From the NCBI RefSeq assembly GCF_024159085.1, contig NZ_JAMZDE010000005.1, forward strand, positions 186,001 through 250,000: 64,000 nucleotides of DNA, given 5' to 3'. The stretch's first letter is position 1; each line of letters starts with the position of its first letter. The translations under genes and the position numbers were made by a program. Origin of the DNA: Idiomarina rhizosphaerae (GTDB lineage Bacteria > Pseudomonadota > Gammaproteobacteria > Enterobacterales > Alteromonadaceae). A model generated the notes under the pieces. That model worked only from the letters and a program-made list of their open reading frames with translations. It searched no databases and was not told the origin of the DNA. This document shows, one piece after another, positions 22,461-61,262 of this stretch.

Positions 22461-22516
22461 GTAGCCTGACATTTATGTCAGGTGAGGTGCCGTTCCTGAC
22501 GTGAACGTCAGGCTAC
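22461..22516. repeat. BIME: two inverted REP units, copy 1
   Basis: A 56-bp element. The left unit is GTAG plus the hairpin CCTGACA-TTTA-TGTCAGG (22461-22482). The right unit, on the opposite strand, is GTAG plus CCTGACG-TTCA-CGTCAGG (22495-22516). A 12-bp linker separates them. GTAG followed by a small hairpin is the known layout of REP sequences mobilised by RAYT (TnpA-REP) proteins. The seventh stem pair differs between units (A-T versus G-C) while pairing is kept. Confidence 0.88.
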
Positions 22517-22544: not shown

Positions 22545-22600
22545 GTAGCCTGACATTTATGTCAGGTGAGGTGCCGTTCCTGACGTGAACGTCAGGCTAC
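22545..22600. repeat. BIME: two inverted REP units, copy 2
   Basis: An exact copy of the 56-bp element at 22461-22516, in the same orientation, after a 28-bp spacer. It ends 15 nt before the metJ stop codon. The pair may act as a bidirectional transcription end or mRNA stabiliser between the converging malic enzyme and metJ genes. No RAYT gene is present in the window. Confidence 0.88.
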
Positions 22601-22615
22601 AGACACAGGCACTGT

Positions 22616-22939
22616 TTAATCGTCGAGCTCTTCGTCGGTTGGAATGGGTAATCCCCGGGCTTCCAGCTCTTCGCGCACGGCTTTGGGGATTTTATTCGGG
22701 TTGGATTTTTGCAAATCTTCGTCTTCCGGTAGCGGCTGACCGGTAAAAGCGTGTAAAAACGCCTCACACAGCAGTTCGCTGTTGGTAGCATGGCGCAGAT
22801 TATTAATTTGGCGACGAGTTCGTTCATCGGTCAGTACTTTTAATACGCGCGTGGGTATTGAGACCGTAACTTTTTTCACCTGCTGACTCTTACGACCGTG
22901 TTCAGCATAAGGGTAAATATATTCGCCGTTCCATTTCAT
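22616..22939 (-). CDS. metJ: Methionine repressor MetJ
   Basis: MetJ is a ribbon-helix-helix dimer that represses methionine genes when bound to S-adenosylmethionine. The 107-residue product matches E. coli MetJ closely, including [13 protein letters not shown], the DNA-binding strand [15 protein letters not shown], and [20 protein letters not shown]. The start at 22939 is set by this similarity; the frame extends 24 codons upstream without homology. It faces metL across a region with MetJ-box-like sequence. The C-terminus is somewhat divergent and acidic. Confidence 0.96.
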
Positions 22940-23016: not shown

Positions 23017-23032
23017 ATCCGTCTAGATGGCT
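23017..23032. promoter_or_regulatory. MetJ-box-like pair between metJ and metL
   Basis: Two adjacent 8-mers, ATCCGTCT and AGATGGCT, each match the MetJ box AGACGTCT at six of eight positions. MetJ binds arrays of at least two such boxes, and this is the expected place for autoregulation and metL control. The match is moderate. Confidence 0.55.
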
Positions 23033-23113: not shown

Positions 23114-25555
23114 ATGACCACAACTCAGCTCACAGAAGAGCAAAAGCAAGCCGTTGCCGACAGCGTTCAGGTGCATAAGTTTGGCGGCAGCAGTCTTGCC
23201 GATGCGTTCTGCTATCGCCGCGTTGCCCGAATTGTAACCGAGTACGCCGGTGCCAGCGACTTAGTCGTCGTTTCCGCAGCCGGAGATACAACCAACCGCA
23301 TTCTTGCCATTATTAATGCCAAAGCTCAGCCGGGCGACACCGCCAGCATTCTGCTCGATCAATTAGAGAGCTTTCAGCAGGGGTTAATCACCGAACTATT
23401 GAGCGGTGATTTACAACAACAACTGCTGCAACAATCACAACAAGACTTCACCCGCTGGCGTCATTGGTTAGCCGGCGACGAAGTCATTAGCCATAACGCC
23501 GAATTACTGTCCTACGGTGAGCTTTGGTCCGCCCGTTTATTATCAGCTTTACTGCAAAAACAGGGCACCCGTGCCGACTACATTGATGCCCGCGACTTTT
23601 TACTCGCCGCAGATGCTCCTGAGCCGGTTATTCAGGTAGAGCATTCGCGTGAGAAACTGTTACAAAGAGTTGCCCTTCACTCGGGCACCCGCTTTATTGT
23701 TACTGGCTTTATTGCCCGCGGTTTAAACGGCGAGAGTTTAACTCTGGGGCGTAACGGCAGCGACTATTCAGCGACCTTAGTAGGCAGTCTGCTGGATACA
23801 CGTCAAGTTACTATCTGGAAAGACGTTGCCGGCGTTTATTCGGCAGATCCGCGCAAAGTTGAGCGTGTAGTAAGCTTACCAACATTAGACTGGACCGAAG
23901 CTGAAGAACTCGCACGCCTTGGCAGCCCGGTTCTGCACCCAAGAACCTTTCAGCCGGTCGACCGTCAACGCATGGTCATTTCCGTTCGTTCCAGTTTGAA
24001 AGTAGAAAATCAGCAAACTCGTATTGGTCAGTTCCAGAATACTCAGCCCCGCGGAAAAGTTTTCACTTCTCTGTCTGAGGTGGTTCTGTTTAAGGTTGAG
24101 TTGCACGATAAAGCCTTAGTGAAACGTCTGGATGAACTGGAATTAGAACCGCTGGTCAGCTGGACCGAGCCGGAAAATCATCAGCAGTATCTGGTGTTTC
24201 ATCAAAATCACTTAGACTACCTGACCGGCTGGTTAGACAGTCTGGGCGCGGGTGATGCCATTACTCAAATTCGCGGCTATTCCATGCTGGCCATTGTCGG
24301 TAACCGCATTCAGGAAACCGACCAGTTCTCGACCTTTAAATTACAACTTTCCGAACAAAAAGTGCGGCGTTTTGCGCTAACACAGAACGGCGACTCTGCT
24401 GTTGCTATTCTGGAACAAAAGCTTGATAACCGCTTACTCAATCGCTTGCACAGCCAATTATTCAATTATCGTCGCAGCCTGGGTGTGCTGGTCATTGGCC
24501 GCGGCAACATTGGTACGGCCTGGCTGGAACTGTTCCGACAGCAGCGCGACCGCATTAACCAAGTGATGGACGTTCGGGTTATGGGCATCGCCAACTCGCG
24601 GCGTTTATGGCTGGATTACAATGGCGTCGAGCTCACTCAGTGGGCAGAAGACTTCGATCGTCTGGCGCGGCCTTATGTACTCACGGAACTGTTGCGCGAG
24701 TTGCCAAATGCACCATACGACGAGATGGTCGTCATTGACTTGACTGATGCCAAGCAAGTCGCGCAACTGTATCCCAGCTTGTTCGCAAACGGTCTGCATA
24801 TTATCAGCGCCAACAAACGCGCGGGCTCCGCCGACGAAGCGCTGTACCGGGAAATTCGTACCATTCAGCACGAGTACGAGCGTGAATGGCTATACAACAC
24901 CACGGTGGGTGCCGGATTGCCGCTGAATTATGCCATAAACGATTTGCGAAATTCCGGCGACGAAATTCGCAGTATCTCCGGTATTTTCTCGGGTACCATG
25001 TCGTGGCTGTTTGAGAATTTTACCAAAGGAGTCACTTTCAGTTCATTGGTAAAAGAAGCCAAAGAGCGGGGTTATAGCGAGCCTGATCCTCGTGAAGACC
25101 TGTCCTGTCAGGACTTGGTGCGTAAATTACTGATTCTGGCACGCGAAATTGGCTTAAAACTGGACTGGCAGGACATTGAAGTAAAAAGCCTGGTACCGGA
25201 GCATTTACGTGAGCTACCACTTAGCGAGTTTATGCAACGCTTATCCGAACTTGATGAGCCCATGGCGGCGATGCTGGACGAAGCGGCTAAAGACGGCAAA
25301 GTGCCGCGACTGCTGGCCAGCTTTACCGTCAGTGACGAGCAAAGAGTTACTGCTCAGGTTGGTATTGAATACATTCCGGAAGGGGACATGCTGGCCAACT
25401 TAATACCCGGCGAAAACATCTTCGTTATCTACACCGACTGGTATTCCGAAATGCCGTTAGTTATTAGCGGACCTGGTGCGGGTAAACACGTTACTGCTGG
25501 CGGCGTGCAATCGGATCTCAATCAGTTACTGAGTAAACTGGCAGTGGGAGCTTAA
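23114..25555 (+). CDS. metL: Bifunctional aspartate kinase II / homoserine dehydrogenase II
   Basis: An 813-residue fusion carrying out the first and third steps from aspartate to homoserine. The kinase begins with VHKFGGSSLAD near residue 20 and has the substrate motif TLGRNGSDYSATLVG. The dehydrogenase half starts near residue 455 with VLVIGRGNIGTAW and includes NTTVGAGLPL. In E. coli metB lies between metJ and metL; here metL directly follows the metJ divergence. Control by MetJ is likely. Confidence 0.95.
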   Translation: MTTTQLTEEQKQAVADSVQVHKFGGSSLADAFCYRRVARIVTEYAGASDLVVVSAAGDTTNRILAIINAKAQPGDTASILLDQLESFQQGLITELLSGDLQQQLLQQSQQDFTRWRHWLAGDEVISHNAELLSYGELWSARLLSALLQKQGTRADYIDARDFLLAADAPEPVIQVEHSREKLLQRVALHSGTRFIVTGFIARGLNGESLTLGRNGSDYSATLVGSLLDTRQVTIWKDVAGVYSADPRKVERVVSLPTLDWTEAEELARLGSPVLHPRTFQPVDRQRMVISVRSSLKVENQQTRIGQFQNTQPRGKVFTSLSEVVLFKVELHDKALVKRLDELELEPLVSWTEPENHQQYLVFHQNHLDYLTGWLDSLGAGDAITQIRGYSMLAIVGNRIQETDQFSTFKLQLSEQKVRRFALTQNGDSAVAILEQKLDNRLLNRLHSQLFNYRRSLGVLVIGRGNIGTAWLELFRQQRDRINQVMDVRVMGIANSRRLWLDYNGVELTQWAEDFDRLARPYVLTELLRELPNAPYDEMVVIDLTDAKQVAQLYPSLFANGLHIISANKRAGSADEALYREIRTIQHEYEREWLYNTTVGAGLPLNYAINDLRNSGDEIRSISGIFSGTMSWLFENFTKGVTFSSLVKEAKERGYSEPDPREDLSCQDLVRKLLILAREIGLKLDWQDIEVKSLVPEHLRELPLSEFMQRLSELDEPMAAMLDEAAKDGKVPRLLASFTVSDEQRVTAQVGIEYIPEGDMLANLIPGENIFVIYTDWYSEMPLVISGPGAGKHVTAGGVQSDLNQLLSKLAVGA

Positions 25556-50934: not shown

Positions 50935-51591
50935 TTAGGCCAGCTTTTGTTGGTGTTGTTGCCGGTATTGCGCAATGTCCTCAATGGTCAGCACAGACAT
51001 CTTATGACGACGAGCAAATGCAACAACCTCAGGGGTTTTAGCCATGGTGCCGTCAGGGTTGGTGAGTTCACAGAGAACCCCTGCAGGGACTAACCCCGAC
51101 ATCTGCATCAAGTCTACCGTTCCTTCGGTATGTCCGCGGCGAGTTAAGACTCCTCCCGAGCGGGCACGCAGTGGAAAGATATGGCCGGGCCGAGCGAGAT
51201 CGCTGGGTCTGGCATCAGAATAAATCGCGGTTTTAATGGTGGTCACCCGATCTTGGGCAGAAACACCAGTAGTTACCCCTTCCTTTGCTTCAATTGAGAC
51301 CGTAAAAGCGGTTTGGTTTTTACTATTGTTTTCGGTCACCATTGGAGGTAAGTCTAGTTGATTGGCTTGTGAGTCGGTCAGGCAGAGACAAACTATTCCG
51401 CTACCTTCACGGATCATCATTGCCATCTGAGCAGCCGTAAGGCTTTCTGCCGCATAAATTATGTCCCCCTCATTCTCACGATCTTCATCGTCTAAAAGCA
51501 AAACGCCTTGACCTTGACGGAGGGATGTAAGGGCTTGTTCAACACGCGAAATCGGATCACCGAACTCGGAAACTAAAGAAAACTGATTCAT
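50935..51591 (-). CDS. ribB: 3,4-dihydroxy-2-butanone-4-phosphate synthase
   Basis: RibB converts ribulose 5-phosphate to the four-carbon precursor of riboflavin. The 218-residue protein has the acidic metal-binding segment [18 protein letters not shown] and the signature [17 protein letters not shown]. It is the stand-alone form, without a GTP cyclohydrolase II domain. An FMN riboswitch and terminator lie upstream, so expression should fall when FMN is abundant. Confidence 0.97.
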
Positions 51592-51669: not shown

Positions 51670-51705
51670 AACCACGCCCACCTCTTATTTGGTGTGTTTG
51701 TTCAT

Positions 51706-51855
51706 TCTCTCTCATCCGGACTATCACCGTCGGCTCTGGCATCAGACCAGATCTGCTGACCTCGACGAATCGAGCGCTCGTGGGCTCACTTGGACACTGT
51801 CAATAAGCAGCACCATGTCTACCACCGGTGGGGAATTGCACCCCGCCCTGAGAAT
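51706..51855 (-). ncRNA. FMN riboswitch (RFN element)
   Basis: On the minus strand the conserved RFN segments occur in order: CAGGGCGGGGTGCAATTCCC, CACCGGTGGTA, AGCCCACGAGCGC, GGTCAGCAGATCTGGT, CCAGAGCCGACGG and AGTCCGGATGAGAGA. These form the multi-branched FMN aptamer. It precedes the terminator and ribB and should act on transcription elongation. Confidence 0.95.
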
Positions 51856-51924
51856 TTTTAATTACAACATTTCAGTCGACTGATATAGCCAACTGAGCAC
51901 TGCTATTAGTCAGCAACGCAATAG

Positions 51925-56381: not shown

Positions 56382-56834
56382 ATGCAACACCGAATTTCAC
56401 AATCTTCACTTTATAAACAATGCCCGCGCCTAGTGACTCATTTAACCGCATTAGGTGACGTGCCGGAATCAGCAAAGCTATCCCCGCAACTTCTGCATCT
56501 CGTCAAATTGCGCGCATCACAACTAAACCACTGTGGCTTTTGTCAGAAAATGCATGCTGATGAAGCCCGAGCTGATGGTGAAGTCCAGTCAAGGTTAGAT
56601 GTGCTCCCGGCCTGGAAGGAATTATCCTGTTTTACCGAAAAAGAGCAAGCTGCGTTGGCTTGGACGGAAGCACTAACGCTAATTAACGATGTAGAGATAG
56701 CTGATAATATCTTTCAAGCTGCACTGGACGCTTTTGGAGAAGGCGAGTTAATTGAATTGACCGCGGTCATAGTACAGATAAATAGCTGGAATCGTATTGC
56801 CGTAAGTTTCCGTTTCCAACCCGACATAAAATAA
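56382..56834 (+). CDS. AhpD-like carboxymuconolactone decarboxylase family protein
   Basis: A 150-residue all-helical protein of the CMD/AhpD superfamily. The redox centre CxxC-x3-H is present as CGFCQKMH (Cys51, Cys54, His58), which supports alkylhydroperoxidase-type activity. The ATG at 56382 is chosen because GGAGGA lies 5 nt upstream; an earlier in-frame TTG overlaps that site. It overlaps the next gene by 1 nt. Confidence 0.9.
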   Translation: MQHRISQSSLYKQCPRLVTHLTALGDVPESAKLSPQLLHLVKLRASQLNHCGFCQKMHADEARADGEVQSRLDVLPAWKELSCFTEKEQAALAWTEALTLINDVEIADNIFQAALDAFGEGELIELTAVIVQINSWNRIAVSFRFQPDIK

Positions 56835-57031
56835 TGGGTCGTAGTATGAAAGCAACTTTCTTACAGCGCCTTCAAAAAAACACATTAGGGATATTGGCTA
56901 GCTTGTCGTTTTTCTTTGGAAGTATGCTATTTCTACCCACTTTCGCAAGCTACGCAACAGTAGGTGTGTGGCTCTTCATGACAGGATCGGCGTTGATGTT
57001 TATCGATATTATTCGCCCACTAAATGATTAG
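56834..57031 (+). CDS. YrhK-like small membrane protein
   Basis: A 65-residue protein with two hydrophobic segments, LGILASLSFFFGSMLFLP and GVWLFMTGSALMFIDII, matching the YrhK domain pattern with its paired GS turns. The start overlaps the AhpD-like stop in TAATG; an ATG four codons later is also possible. The function of YrhK proteins is unknown. Coupling to a peroxidase-type gene hints at an envelope stress role. Confidence 0.7.
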   Translation: MGRSMKATFLQRLQKNTLGILASLSFFFGSMLFLPTFASYATVGVWLFMTGSALMFIDIIRPLND

Positions 57032-57420: not shown

Positions 57421-57450
57421 TTTACCTCCACCACTCATCTCGCTTATGCT
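57421..57450 (+). promoter_or_regulatory. Predicted promoter of the MetJ-box TonB receptor
   Basis: TTTACC (57421-57426) and TATGCT (57445-57450) are separated by 18 bp. The start of transcription would fall at about 57457, inside the MetJ-box array, so a bound repressor would block the promoter. Confidence 0.5.
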
Positions 57451-57454
57451 AAAT

Positions 57455-57478
57455 AGCCGTTTAGACGTCTAAACGGCT
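57455..57478. promoter_or_regulatory. Three tandem MetJ boxes (24-bp perfect palindrome)
   Basis: Three adjacent 8-mers, AGCCGTTT, AGACGTCT and AAACGGCT, match the MetJ consensus AGACGTCT at 6, 8 and 6 of 8 positions. Together they form a perfect 24-bp palindrome 26 bp upstream of the receptor start. MetJ binds cooperatively to such tandem boxes. Confidence 0.85.
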
Positions 57479-57504
57479 TATTCGTTCATTTTGTGAGGTA
57501 TTTA

Positions 57505-60117
57505 ATGAAATCAAAGTTCTTTACGTTATCAACTGTTGCCGCTGGGCTTATCGCCGCATCGGCATCCCCAGCTCTGTTAGCCAATGATGCTAGCTCCGAG
57601 CTGGAACGCATTAGTGTTACGGGTTCCTACATTAAACGGGCCCAGAATGAAGACGCCACGCCGTTGCAAATTATTGATGCCAGCGACATATCGGCCAGCG
57701 GTGAAATTACGCTTACGGACTTGCTGCGTGACTTAACGGTGAATACCGGTAACAGTTACGACGAGCAATATACCAGCAGCTTTTCGGCGGGTTCGGCTTC
57801 GGTTGGCTTACGCGGCTTAAGCCCCAAAAACACGCTTATTCTGGTGAATGGTCAGCGGGTCTCTAACTACGGTTTTGCGCTGGGCACTCAGGATACCTTC
57901 GTTGACTTAAACGCCTTACCTTTAGGCGCGGTGGAGCGCATAGAGGTACTGAAAGACGGCGCTTCCGCGGTCTATGGATCGGACGCCATTGCCGGGGTTA
58001 TCAACATTATTTTGCGTAACAACGTACAAAACACCCAATTTCGGGCGGGTGTCGGCGGAGCCAGCGAAGGTTCATTAACGCAGTACAGCGCAGGCATTAT
58101 CAGCGGGTTTGGCGACATAGGAGACGACGGTTATAACCTGACATTCAGCTACGATTATCTGACCCGCGAGCGGCTAAATGCCGACGACCGCGACTTTACT
58201 CGTTCCGGTGACTTTCGCGATAAGCCCGGCGGGCGTTTAGCCGGCTGGTCGTCACAGGGCGGTAACTATTTAAGTGATCCGCAAAACCCTCAGGCTTTTG
58301 AGAACTGCCCGGGCATTTCTGAAAAAAGAGACCGAAGCGATTTCACCCCAGGTGCAGAGGGCCAGGTGTGTGCTTTTAACACCCAGCCATACAACACGCT
58401 GCAACCGGAAGTTGAGCGGCATCAGTTCTCACTGCAAGGCACCTTGCAAATCACCGATGACCTGCAGGCCTACAGCGACTTTCTGTACAGCAATAACCGT
58501 TCAAGCCATGTTTTTGGCGCACCGTTAAGCGTCGGTGCCGGGCTGCGGGCTTACAATCAGGAAACCGGCAGTTTAGTGGATATTCCGGTGGAATTACCGG
58601 TCGGGCATCCGGACAACCCGGGTTCAGAGGCCTTACCTTTTGAATACACGTTTTTTGATGTAGGCGAGCGCGTAAAAGCCAATAAGCAAGACTTTCACCG
58701 CTTTCTGGCCGGTGTAAATTACCGTGGCTTAGACTGGGACTGGTCAGTTAACGTGCTGAATTCACAAAGCCGCCAACGCGAGTATGTTGATAACTTTATT
58801 AACCGCTACACTTTTGAAGATGTGCTGGCCAGCGGCGAGTATGATTTCTTTAACGGCAACAATGACCCGGAAACCATTGAAGCGTTGCGCATTGATACGC
58901 GTCGTCCGGGCTTTTACGAGCTAAACAGTATTAACGCGAATGCCAGCACCATTTTAAAAGAGCTGGATAACGGGCCGCTAAGCGTTGCCTTTGGGGTCGA
59001 CTGGCGTGAAGAAGAAATGGATGCGGGAACCTCACCGGAGGTGTTATCGGGCACCGAACTGCGTCCGGCTATCAACCTGGTTAAAGGGAAACGACAAGTT
59101 GCCGCAGGCTTTGTTGAGCTGGACGTTCCGGTTGTCGAGAACCTGAATGTGAACCTTGCCGGCCGTTATGACCATTATGATGATTTTGGTTCAGCCTGGT
59201 CACCTAAAGTGGCGTTTCACTATGTTTTAGGCGACGACTGGTTGCTGCGCGGTTCCTGGTCCCGCGGCTTTCGTGCGCCATCGCTTCCGGAAATCGCAGA
59301 GAGCAACACCATCAGTTATGGCTCGGTTATCGATCCGAATGACCCCATTGATCCGGGCGTGCGACGCGGTTTCACGCAAGTGCGCACGGGTAATTCCGAG
59401 CTCGACGCCGAGCGCTCAACCAACCTCAATGCCGGTATTATTTGGTCTCCGCAAAAAGGCGCCAGCATTGCTGTAGATGTATTTGAGATTGAACAGGACG
59501 ACATTATTGCCCCCGATAACGCGCAGTTTATTGTCAATAATGAAGAACAGTACGCTGATCGTATTCAGCGTGACGATGCAGGCCGACTGCAAATTATCAG
59601 CAACCAATACCGCAACCAGGGCACCCGCTCTACCCGCGGTTTTGATATTGATGCGAACTACCAAGTGCAGTTAAGCAACTCTACGCTTCAGTTTCAGAGC
59701 ACCTGGTCACGGCTGTTGGAGTACGAACAGGCGTTAGTTGCCGGTCAGGAGCCTATTGATGGTGCTGGTGGTAATATTTTAGGTGCTCTGCCCAAGTGGA
59801 AAGGTAACAATCAGCTACGCTGGCTTGTTAGCGACTGGCAATGGGGCGTCAGCCTTAACTACACCAGCAGCTACGAGCAGCAGGTTGCCACACAAAGCAG
59901 CAACCCGGGCTTAGATGAAAAGGTTGATAGTTACTGGCAGGTTGATTCTCAACTGGTTTATCAAGGCTTTGGTGACACTCAGCTGACCTTAAATATCAGC
60001 AACCTGTTCGACGAGGAGCCGCCGTTTGATCCAGCCGGAGGTGCCTACGGATACGATATGACCCAGTACAACCTGCGCGGTCGAACGGCTAATATATCCG
60101 TTGTTCATAATTTTTAA
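57505..60117 (+). CDS. TonB-dependent receptor, probable MetJ regulon member
   Basis: An 870-residue outer-membrane receptor. The signal peptide ends near residue 26; the TonB-box-like ERISVTGSYI follows, then a plug domain with NTLILVNGQRVSNYG and VERIEVLKDGASAVYGSDAI, and a barrel with SWSRGFRAPSLPE and a C-terminal HNF. The ATG at 57505 follows GAGG. MetJ boxes in the promoter suggest uptake of a methionine-related compound or cobalamin (cofactor of MetH); the sequence alone does not fix the ligand. An intrinsic terminator ends the gene. Confidence 0.92.
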   Translation: MKSKFFTLSTVAAGLIAASASPALLANDASSELERISVTGSYIKRAQNEDATPLQIIDASDISASGEITLTDLLRDLTVNTGNSYDEQYTSSFSAGSASVGLRGLSPKNTLILVNGQRVSNYGFALGTQDTFVDLNALPLGAVERIEVLKDGASAVYGSDAIAGVINIILRNNVQNTQFRAGVGGASEGSLTQYSAGIISGFGDIGDDGYNLTFSYDYLTRERLNADDRDFTRSGDFRDKPGGRLAGWSSQGGNYLSDPQNPQAFENCPGISEKRDRSDFTPGAEGQVCAFNTQPYNTLQPEVERHQFSLQGTLQITDDLQAYSDFLYSNNRSSHVFGAPLSVGAGLRAYNQETGSLVDIPVELPVGHPDNPGSEALPFEYTFFDVGERVKANKQDFHRFLAGVNYRGLDWDWSVNVLNSQSRQREYVDNFINRYTFEDVLASGEYDFFNGNNDPETIEALRIDTRRPGFYELNSINANASTILKELDNGPLSVAFGVDWREEEMDAGTSPEVLSGTELRPAINLVKGKRQVAAGFVELDVPVVENLNVNLAGRYDHYDDFGSAWSPKVAFHYVLGDDWLLRGSWSRGFRAPSLPEIAESNTISYGSVIDPNDPIDPGVRRGFTQVRTGNSELDAERSTNLNAGIIWSPQKGASIAVDVFEIEQDDIIAPDNAQFIVNNEEQYADRIQRDDAGRLQIISNQYRNQGTRSTRGFDIDANYQVQLSNSTLQFQSTWSRLLEYEQALVAGQEPIDGAGGNILGALPKWKGNNQLRWLVSDWQWGVSLNYTSSYEQQVATQSSNPGLDEKVDSYWQVDSQLVYQGFGDTQLTLNISNLFDEEPPFDPAGGAYGYDMTQYNLRGRTANISVVHNF

Positions 60118-60233: not shown

Positions 60234-61262
60234 ATGAAAAAATGGATCTGGATAATTGCATCGGGAGTTACCGCAATAGCAGCGGTTAATGTCCAGGCGC
60301 AAGAACTGTCTGATATGCAGCAGTGTCTGCTAGATGAAATGAACAGCACGAAAGCGGAGACCACTATTGCCGATGTGAGGTCTAAATGCGAGGAGAAACT
60401 TCGCTCTGCTGACGATGAAGATATTGTTGAAGTGGATGCCGTAGAAGAGCCCGGTGCTTTAACCAATCGTATGAAAAGAGAGCAAATAACCCAGTTTGAC
60501 CCTTACGTGTTAACGCCGCACCGTCGTAACTATTTATTACCCTTTATTTCCAGCAACAATATCAACCGGTTACGGTACGCTGATGTTGAAGGCTATCAGG
60601 AAAATCTGGAAGATCACGAAGCAAAATTTCAGGTCAGCTTTAAAATACCCTTTAATAGGGAAGGCTTCTTATTTGAGGACGACCAGCTGTTCTTTGGTTT
60701 AACGATACAGTCCTGGTGGCAGCTGTATTCCAGTAATATTTCTAAGCCATTCCGTGAAACCAACTACATGCCCGAGCTTTTCTACGCCACTTCAACCGGC
60801 TGGCACCCTTTTGGTACCAATACCGCGCTAGTTTTTGGTGTAGAGCATTTATCTAACGGCCGCAGCCAGCCATTGTCACGCAGCTGGAACCGCGGATATA
60901 TGCAATTTGTGGTGGAAAAAGACCGCTTTGTTTTCTCGCTGAAGCCCTGGTTACGTTTTCAGGAAGACCCAAAAACAGACCCCATGCAGTCCAGTGGCGA
61001 CGACAACCCGAATATTACCGATTACGTGGGTGACTATGAATTCACCACCGCCTATAACGATGGTGATTTCGAGTACATTCTCAGGCTCCGCCATGCCATA
61101 GATACCGGCAGAGGGTCGGCGGAGCTTAACTGGACATTTCCTATTGGCGGGAAGTTTATTGGCTATACCTCAATTTTCACCGGTTACGGAGAGAGCCTGA
61201 TTGATTACAACCACAAGCAGACTCGTTTTGGTATCGGTATAGCCTTAAACAATATTCTATAA
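60234..61262 (+). CDS. pldA: Outer-membrane phospholipase A
   Basis: PldA hydrolyses phospholipids that appear in the outer leaflet of the outer membrane. The 342-residue protein has a signal peptide (cleavage after about residue 22), an acidic N-terminal linker that is longer than usual, and the catalytic set His205, Ser207 and Asn219 in EHLSNGRSQ...SRSWNR. The barrel strands follow to the C-terminus. It converges on the next TonB receptor gene with only 4 nt between stops. Confidence 0.94.
   Translation: MKKWIWIIASGVTAIAAVNVQAQELSDMQQCLLDEMNSTKAETTIADVRSKCEEKLRSADDEDIVEVDAVEEPGALTNRMKREQITQFDPYVLTPHRRNYLLPFISSNNINRLRYADVEGYQENLEDHEAKFQVSFKIPFNREGFLFEDDQLFFGLTIQSWWQLYSSNISKPFRETNYMPELFYATSTGWHPFGTNTALVFGVEHLSNGRSQPLSRSWNRGYMQFVVEKDRFVFSLKPWLRFQEDPKTDPMQSSGDDNPNITDYVGDYEFTTAYNDGDFEYILRLRHAIDTGRGSAELNWTFPIGGKFIGYTSIFTGYGESLIDYNHKQTRFGIGIALNNIL

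What the first reader, a model, noticed from the sequence alone, without database searches (positions are those of the whole stretch)
57455..57505. TonB-dependent receptor controlled by three tandem MetJ boxes
A perfect 24-bp palindrome made of three adjacent 8-mers (6/8, 8/8 and 6/8 matches to AGACGTCT) sits over the predicted transcription start of a TonB receptor gene. MetJ is encoded in the same window at 22616-22939. Methionine repression of an outer-membrane receptor would imply active uptake of a methionine-related compound, or of cobalamin needed by MetH. The ligand is unassigned.
Basis: partly seen in the sequence, partly recalled or inferred. Interest (0 to 1): 0.78.

Follow-up and report, generated by a model that had tools for sequence, protein, structure and literature searches.

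The report
Methionine-repressed outer-membrane uptake receptor
A marine bacterium's outer-membrane uptake receptor of unknown cargo carries a strong, evolutionarily conserved switch for the methionine repressor MetJ, which points to a methionine-related or other sulphur nutrient rather than vitamin B12 as its cargo.

Summary
The perfect 24-bp palindrome at 57455-57478 is three adjacent metboxes (6/8, 8/8, 6/8), ending 26 nt before the ATG of a TonB-dependent receptor (57505-60117). With a published MetJ weight matrix it scores 27.8 bits (threshold 12.58); the only other passing site in the window is the metJ/metL operator.

Passing sites lie upstream of 24 of 24 orthologues found in 395 genomes of the family (five genera), in unlike flanks; none upstream of 22 genus paralogues, 5 xanthomonad-type homologues or in 372 background windows. 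MetJ repression is very likely but unmeasured.

Cobalamin does not fit this genus: 0 of 19 genomes showed BtuB, a cobalamin riboswitch or MetH. None showed the other methionine-synthase families searched, PF02574 and PF01717, so outside methionine or sulphur could matter.

In Rheinheimera pacifica the receptor diverges from a 2OG-oxygenase/methionine-gamma-lyase-like pair among sulphur genes. In one genus a candidate leader peptide ending in cysteine codons lies between metbox and receptor.

The ligand is unproven.

The parts
57455..57478 (.). Operator: three adjacent metboxes forming a perfect 24-bp palindrome
   Evidence: 27.8 bits with the published metbox matrix against a 12.58-bit threshold (matrix read in PMC3228920 section 21)
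57421..57426 (+). Putative -35 element TTTACC
   Evidence: Read directly; weak, pair not listed by the promoter scan; TTTACC also stands upstream of the 5 named Idiomarina orthologues
57445..57450 (+). Putative -10 element TATGCT; it would place the transcription start at the 5' end of the operator
   Evidence: Read directly; pair not listed (8 of 12 consensus matches)
57495..57498 (+). Shine-Dalgarno-like GAGG
   Evidence: Read directly
57505..60117 (+). TonB-dependent receptor, 870 aa, plug plus beta-barrel
   Evidence: Pfam Plug 7.1e-19 and TonB_dep_Rec_b-barrel 1.5e-44; none of the 24 NCBIfam families listed reaches its cut-off
22616..22939 (-). metJ, methionine repressor
   Evidence: Pfam MetJ 1.2e-59; NCBIfam NF003622 182.5 bits, cut-off 110
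23017..23032 (.). metJ/metL divergent operator (two metboxes), positive control inside the window
   Evidence: 14.9 bits, the only other passing site in the window
23114..25555 (+). metL, bifunctional aspartate kinase/homoserine dehydrogenase II
   Evidence: NF007003 1040.6 bits, cut-off 582

Best explanation
The site is a MetJ operator placed over the transcription start of a TonB-dependent receptor gene. When S-adenosylmethionine is plentiful, MetJ dimers bind the three adjacent boxes and block the promoter; when methionine/SAM runs low the receptor is made and brings a methionine-related or other organosulphur nutrient (for example methionine, methionine-containing peptides or their oxidised forms) through the outer membrane. 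Shown here by sequence: the operator, its conservation with the receptor and its absence from the paralogues examined, and MetJ in the same genome. From established knowledge of MetJ: SAM-dependent repression at two or more adjacent boxes. Inferred: repression in this organism and the nature of the ligand.
For: Published matrix and thresholds: 24 of 24 orthologue upstream regions (600 nt) pass; 0 of 22 genus paralogues, 0 of 5 xanthomonad-type homologues (one with only 89 nt upstream) and 0 of 372 background windows pass. Per-sequence dinucleotide shuffles: 2-box P at most 0.01 in 24 of 24, and at least 0.10 in 27 of 27 controls. Anchored comparison of 12 representatives: 1.43 bits per column in the two boxes, 0.23-0.45 upstream, 0.68 then 0.29 downstream; anchoring on the box inflates this. 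The same genome has passing metboxes at a metX-like/metY-like pair, msrA and metJ/metL. The genus showed no MetH, PF02574 or PF01717, 0 of 19 each, so methionine or methylated sulphur from outside would matter. In Rheinheimera pacifica the receptor is divergent from a 2OG-Fe(II) oxygenase and a methionine-gamma-lyase-like gene, beside sulphate-binding, FMN-reductase, sulphur-transport and rhodanese genes; a MegL-like/PcbC-like pair carries metboxes in a few Shewanella species according to PMC3228920 section 13.
Against: No binding or expression data. The ligand is inferred only from regulation and from one informative neighbourhood; no neighbour is conserved across the genera except LysR-looking genes, and neighbours other than those of R. 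pacifica, the window and one gene in L113 were not family-searched. Only 7 of 19 genus genomes have the orthologue, so it is not essential to the genus's methionine supply. The R. pacifica site is weak (14.9 bits; 3-box shuffle P 0.11). In genus g4 the site lies 360-509 nt from the ATG. PMC3228920 doubts that a methionine-degrading lyase belongs under MetJ repression. By the same paper Idiomarina was reported to grow without methionine, so an unknown route may exist (passage). Reversed-pattern controls match as often as the loose pattern.
Confidence: 0.65

Rival explanations
1. MetJ-controlled cobalamin receptor: a diverged BtuB that supplies B12 for MetH, as for the MetJ-controlled btuB genes already known.
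For: btuB is a core MetJ target in gammaproteobacteria (PMC4239095; PMC3228920); BtuB is among the PDB sequence and fold matches.
Against: 0 of 19 genus genomes showed TIGR01779 at E 1e-60, a cobalamin riboswitch or MetH (in some genomes only part of the first-look candidates was scored, for example 39 of 57). P0001 scores 99.7 bits against a 599.7-bit cut-off. PfeA, FepA, PirA and Cir rank above BtuB in sequence and fold. No Rfam cobalamin hit in the 17 orthologue loci scanned or in the window. Other B12 enzymes, and the B12 needs of the other four genera, were not searched.
Confidence: 0.06
2. Siderophore or other metal receptor that has joined the MetJ regulon, for instance to supply iron or zinc to methionine or sulphur enzymes.
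For: Best PDB sequence and fold matches are ferric-enterobactin receptors, 15-16% identical in the ten best fold alignments.
Against: All listed NCBIfam siderophore-receptor scores lie far below their cut-offs. A metal receptor would be expected to carry a metal-repressor site; I did not scan for one. The R. pacifica neighbourhood is sulphur, not iron.
Confidence: 0.15
3. The palindrome is an intrinsic terminator or RNA hairpin of the leader, not a DNA operator.
For: The terminator scan lists it (10 pairs; tail TATTCGTTCA).
Against: Orthologues keep the metboxes and lose the perfect palindrome: AGCCGTTTAGACGTCTAAACATCC in I. xiamenensis, AGACGTCTAGACATCTAAATATCT in L101. No gene ends just upstream: the last ORF of 100 aa or more on this strand ends at 56834, and a shorter possible frame ends near 57031 (read).
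Confidence: 0.03
4. Receptor for a general sulphur source (for example cysteine/cystine compounds, sulphonates or thiosulphate-related organics), with MetJ as one of two sulphur signals. This narrows the best explanation rather than opposing it; its odds are part of the 0.65 given there.
For: In genus g4, candidate leader peptides with 47 Cys in 359 residues, 10 of 10 ending in Cys, lie between metbox and receptor; sulphate-binding and sulphur-transport genes are near the R. pacifica copy.
Against: The cysteine leader is absent from the short leader in the window; translation of the leader peptide and an attenuator structure are not shown.
Confidence: 0.25

Closest known systems
MetJ-regulated btuB (B12 outer-membrane receptor), tested in Yersinia and predicted in a third of species (PMC3228920)
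   Same: A TonB-dependent receptor repressed through metboxes at the transcription start
   Different: Not BtuB by family score; the genus showed no MetH, BtuB or cobalamin riboswitch
HypR- and HutC-regulated TonB receptors for hydroxyproline/proline and histidine (predicted, PMC5343134, passages)
   Same: A TonB receptor tied to an amino-acid nutrient through the amino-acid regulator that controls it; the HypR cases are also in Alteromonadales
   Different: Another regulator (MetJ), and no methionine gene next to the receptor in this window
Methionine transporters MetNIQ and MetT (PMC3228920)
   Same: Uptake genes under MetJ
   Different: Inner-membrane systems; this would be the outer-membrane step. 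I did not check the own genome for either
Cysteine-codon attenuators (uORFC-8-2 upstream of cysS, PMC8632094, passages)
   Same: Short upstream ORF with tandem Cys codons, seen here only in the unnamed genus g4
   Different: Upstream of a TonB receptor and combined with a MetJ operator; not in the window itself

Membership tests
MetJ regulon | Two or more adjacent metboxes passing the published matrix and thresholds | tested here: met
   Three boxes, 27.8 bits, threshold 12.58
MetJ regulon | MetJ encoded in the same genome | tested here: met
   22616-22939
MetJ regulon | Site conserved upstream of orthologues | tested here: met
   24 of 24
MetJ regulon | MetJ binds and represses in a SAM-dependent way | not testable with these tools
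   Needs gel shift and reporter assay
TonB-dependent receptor | Plug domain plus TonB beta-barrel | tested here: met
   PF07715 and PF00593 above gathering scores; fold matches are TonB receptors, on a model of moderate confidence (mean pLDDT 68.6)
TonB-dependent receptor | TonB box and energised transport | not tested
   No TonB interaction or transport data
BtuB (B12 receptor, TIGR01779) | Score above family cut-off | tested here: not met
   99.7 bits against 599.7
BtuB (B12 receptor, TIGR01779) | Cobalamin riboswitch or B12-dependent methionine synthase in the genome | tested here: not met
   0 of 19 genus genomes each
Methionine-compound receptor | Binds or transports methionine or a derivative | not testable with these tools
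   Inferred from regulation only

The most novel reading that the evidence does not exclude
This is the founding member of a family of TonB-dependent receptors for a methionine-type sulphur nutrient, the outer-membrane step of methionine acquisition, gated by MetJ in five genera and, in one of them, additionally by a cysteine-sensing leader peptide, so that transcription start responds to SAM and elongation to charged tRNA-Cys.
Probability: 0.4. Interest if true: 0.75.

Novelty: new variant of a known kind. Interest (0 to 1): 0.55.

Why it matters
TonB receptors are numerous in marine bacteria and most lack known ligands (general knowledge); a tight, lineage-wide link to MetJ narrows this one to methionine or sulphur nutrition and makes it directly testable. 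It also bears on an open puzzle: Idiomarina keeps the genes for homocysteine but has no recognised enzyme to methylate it (PMC3228920, passage; 0 of 19 genomes for MetH, PF02574 and PF01717 here), so how it obtains methionine is unexplained, and this receptor is a concrete candidate component in the species that have it (7 of 19).

Tried and rejected
Cobalamin receptor: rejected for this genus. Intrinsic terminator: rejected because orthologues keep boxes and lose the perfect palindrome. Chance motif: rejected by scores and conservation, although loose-pattern counts do not exceed reversed-pattern controls (32 against 27). Ligand by gene neighbourhood: clustering of neighbours found none shared across genera except one cluster of 8 that looks like LysR regulators by eye; only R. 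pacifica is informative. The window's downstream neighbour, a phospholipase A1 family gene (60234-61262), recurs at 3 other Idiomarina loci only. Ligand by structure: moderate model (pLDDT 68.6, pTM 0.72); the 50 PDB rows shown are TonB receptors at 11-16% identity, so no ligand follows. Attenuator structure in the g4 leaders: consensus folds gave no model shared by the three subgroups; no Rfam hit in the leaders. Differences in the leader ORF are more often non-synonymous than synonymous in all three subgroups (85/35, 33/10, 16/3), so there is no sign of selection on the peptide as a whole. The leader-ORF shuffle test (10 of 10 observed, mean shuffle fraction 0.041) used a criterion set after looking, and the ten leaders fall into three related groups.

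Rows dropped: of 23 paralogue loci returned (L060-L082), L071 was left out because it lies at a contig end; weaker paralogue matches were not fetched. In some searches only two first-look candidates per genome were scored.

Literature: searches MetJ + TonB-dependent + methionine, TonB-dependent receptor + methionine uptake, Idiomarina + methionine + auxotrophy, MetJ + Idiomarina, folate-independent synthases, leader-peptide terms. Seen: PMC4239095, outline and passages and parts 2 and 3 of 6; PMC3228920, outline, passages and sections 5, 12, 13, 21; PMC5343134, PMC8632094 and PMC7857596, passages only. Supplements and RegPrecise could not be read and may list this gene. The I. loihiensis genome paper was not held; what I say of it comes from PMC3228920.

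Full report
WHAT IS THERE. A perfect 24-bp palindrome AGCCGTTTAGACGTCTAAACGGCT lies at 57455-57478, the longest perfect palindrome in the window. It is three adjacent 8-mers matching the MetJ consensus AGACGTCT at 6, 8 and 6 of 8 positions. The 2-box pattern with up to 3 mismatches occurs in the window only here (two overlapping places; 0.12 expected). It ends 26 nt before the ATG of 57505-60117, which encodes a TonB-dependent receptor (Pfam plug and barrel) that reaches none of the NCBIfam cut-offs listed. MetJ is at 22616-22939.

INDEPENDENT YARDSTICK. PMC3228920 section 21 (read whole) gives a metbox weight matrix and thresholds: each box at least one quarter of the consensus value, the whole site at least the consensus value (12.58 bits). 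Applied to the window, two sites pass: this one (27.8 bits, three boxes) and the metJ/metL operator at 23017-23032 (14.9 bits). In the whole genome (2.87 Mb, 9 contigs) the strict 2-box pattern has 4 places: this site twice, one before a metX-like gene (152.5 bits, cut-off 296) followed by a metY-like frame cut by the locus end, and one before msrA (TIGR00401 211 bits, cut-off 108); both of these also pass the matrix (31.6 and 18.1 bits). Against this, the reversed-pattern control gave 6 places in the own genome, and over the 19 genus genomes the pattern had 93 places and the reversed control 110. Loose counts prove nothing; scores, target genes and conservation do.

CONSERVATION. Orthologues (77-100% identity) are in 7 of 19 genus genomes; the other genomes have only matches of about 33% or less over the full length in the rows listed. 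In a draw of 395 family genomes 24 have one at E 1e-150 or better, in 5 of 52 genera; in a draw of 394 order genomes 2 do. Identities run down to 59-60%. Five named Idiomarina contigs were also found (I. zobellii, I. sp. ATCH4, I. xiamenensis, I. ramblicola, I. aquatica); that the window's genome is an Idiomarina is inferred from these. Scanning 600 nt upstream of the 24 with the published thresholds, 24 of 24 pass (14.9 to 31.7 bits). For five of the seven Idiomarina I scanned the named contigs, which appear to be the same species; the unnamed copies were inspected with the same result. Controls: 0 of 22 TonB paralogue loci of the genus (one of 23 dropped), 0 of 5 xanthomonad-type homologues (55-56% identity; PMC4239095 Table 1 reports no MetJ in its four Xanthomonadales; one has only 89 nt upstream) and 0 of 372 background windows of 600 nt pass. 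The background windows come from the 17 non-Idiomarina loci and are mostly coding, so they are not matched for intergenic composition. Dinucleotide shuffles give 2-box P at most 0.01 for each of the 24; the weakest, R. pacifica, has 3-box P 0.11. The sites sit in unlike flanks, at different distances from the gene, and several are not palindromes, which speaks against a conserved hairpin and a merely inherited stretch. The 24 are not independent; by eye they fall into roughly eight to ten upstream types.

HOW IT PROBABLY WORKS. MetJ with SAM binds adjacent metboxes and represses (established knowledge; the need for two or more boxes is stated in PMC3228920). A TTTACC-18 nt-TATGCT promoter would start transcription at the 5' end of the palindrome. 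It is weak by consensus and the scan listed no promoter, but TTTACC and a -10-like hexamer recur upstream of 5 of 5 named Idiomarina orthologues. So the receptor should be off when SAM is high and on when methionine is scarce. This is inferred, not measured.

THE LIGAND. The genus also showed no PF02574 (the homocysteine methyltransferase family of MetH and MmuM) and no PF01717 (catalytic domain of MetE, to which the core synthases of PMC7857596 are homologous; passages): 0 of 19 each. PMC3228920 had noted for Idiomarina the absence of metE, metH and metF with metX1-metY kept, and that it was reported to grow without methionine (passages). A genus with homocysteine but no recognised methionine synthase has an obvious use for methionine or methylated sulphur from outside. 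But 12 of 19 genus genomes do without this receptor, so it is an accessory route.

HINTS FROM RELATIVES. In Rheinheimera pacifica (L031; L105 is the same contig by its length) the receptor is divergent from a 2OG-Fe(II) oxygenase and a methionine-gamma-lyase-like gene (418 bits, equivalog cut-off 549.7, so not a certified lyase), with a two-box site between them. Close by are an FMN reductase, a sulphate-binding protein, a sulphur-transport (PF04143) protein and a rhodanese. PMC3228920 section 13 reports that a MegL-like gene always clustered with a PcbC-like oxygenase carries metboxes in a few Shewanella species, and doubts that it belongs to the regulon; that these are the same pair is my inference from domain content. 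In ten genomes of one unnamed genus (g4) the metbox lies 360-509 nt before the ATG. The leader holds an ATG ORF of 29-46 codons, preceded by GGA- or AGG-containing sequence, with 47 Cys of 359 residues, 10 of 10 ending in Cys and 8 in Cys-Cys, and an invariant CGA-ATG. In the DNA alignments the gaps inside this ORF within each subgroup are 12, 3, 15 and 6 nt, while gaps elsewhere in the leaders include 1 and 4 nt. Chance ORFs meeting a post hoc criterion occur in 1.8-7.4% of shuffles per leader. The peptide shows no selection on the whole and no shared attenuator fold emerged. It is a lead, not a result.

STRUCTURE. The AlphaFold2 model (17 sequences, pLDDT 68.6, pTM 0.72) matches ferric-enterobactin receptors best and BtuB lower, at 11-16% identity among the 50 rows shown; this says TonB receptor and nothing about the ligand.

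VERDICT. MetJ control: about 0.93 likely. MetJ control together with a methionine-related or other organosulphur ligand: about 0.65; the general-sulphur rival (0.25) is part of that figure. It is a non-BtuB kind of MetJ-controlled TonB receptor, similar in logic to the HypR and HutC receptors predicted in PMC5343134 (passages).

Noticed in passing
L106-L112, L114-L116 (genus g4), upstream of the receptor orthologue: Long leader between metbox and receptor with a short ORF ending in cysteine codons; candidate cysteine-sensing attenuator combined with a MetJ operator.
   Followed up: partly
whole genus (19 genomes): MetH, PF02574 and PF01717 found in 0 of 19 genomes, although a metX-like/metY-like pair is present in the own genome: no recognised methionine synthase.
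   Followed up: partly
L031:2290-4723 (Rheinheimera pacifica): Methionine-gamma-lyase-like and 2OG-oxygenase pair divergent from the receptor with a two-box site between them, among sulphur genes.
   Followed up: partly
L113:4327-6462: Another TonB receptor, nearest to PqqU but below its cut-off (481.5 of 1200 bits), directly upstream of the orthologue in G728.
   Followed up: no
window 51700-51859, minus strand: FMN riboswitch upstream of a gene at 50935-51591 that looks like ribB by eye.
   Followed up: no
window 22461-22516 and 22545-22600: Two copies of a repeat containing inverted repeats between a gene that looks like malic enzyme by eye and metJ.
   Followed up: no
L037: A contig labelled Bacillus subtilis carries a xanthomonad-type homologue of the receptor in what looks like high-GC DNA, perhaps a contaminated or mislabelled assembly.
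   Followed up: no
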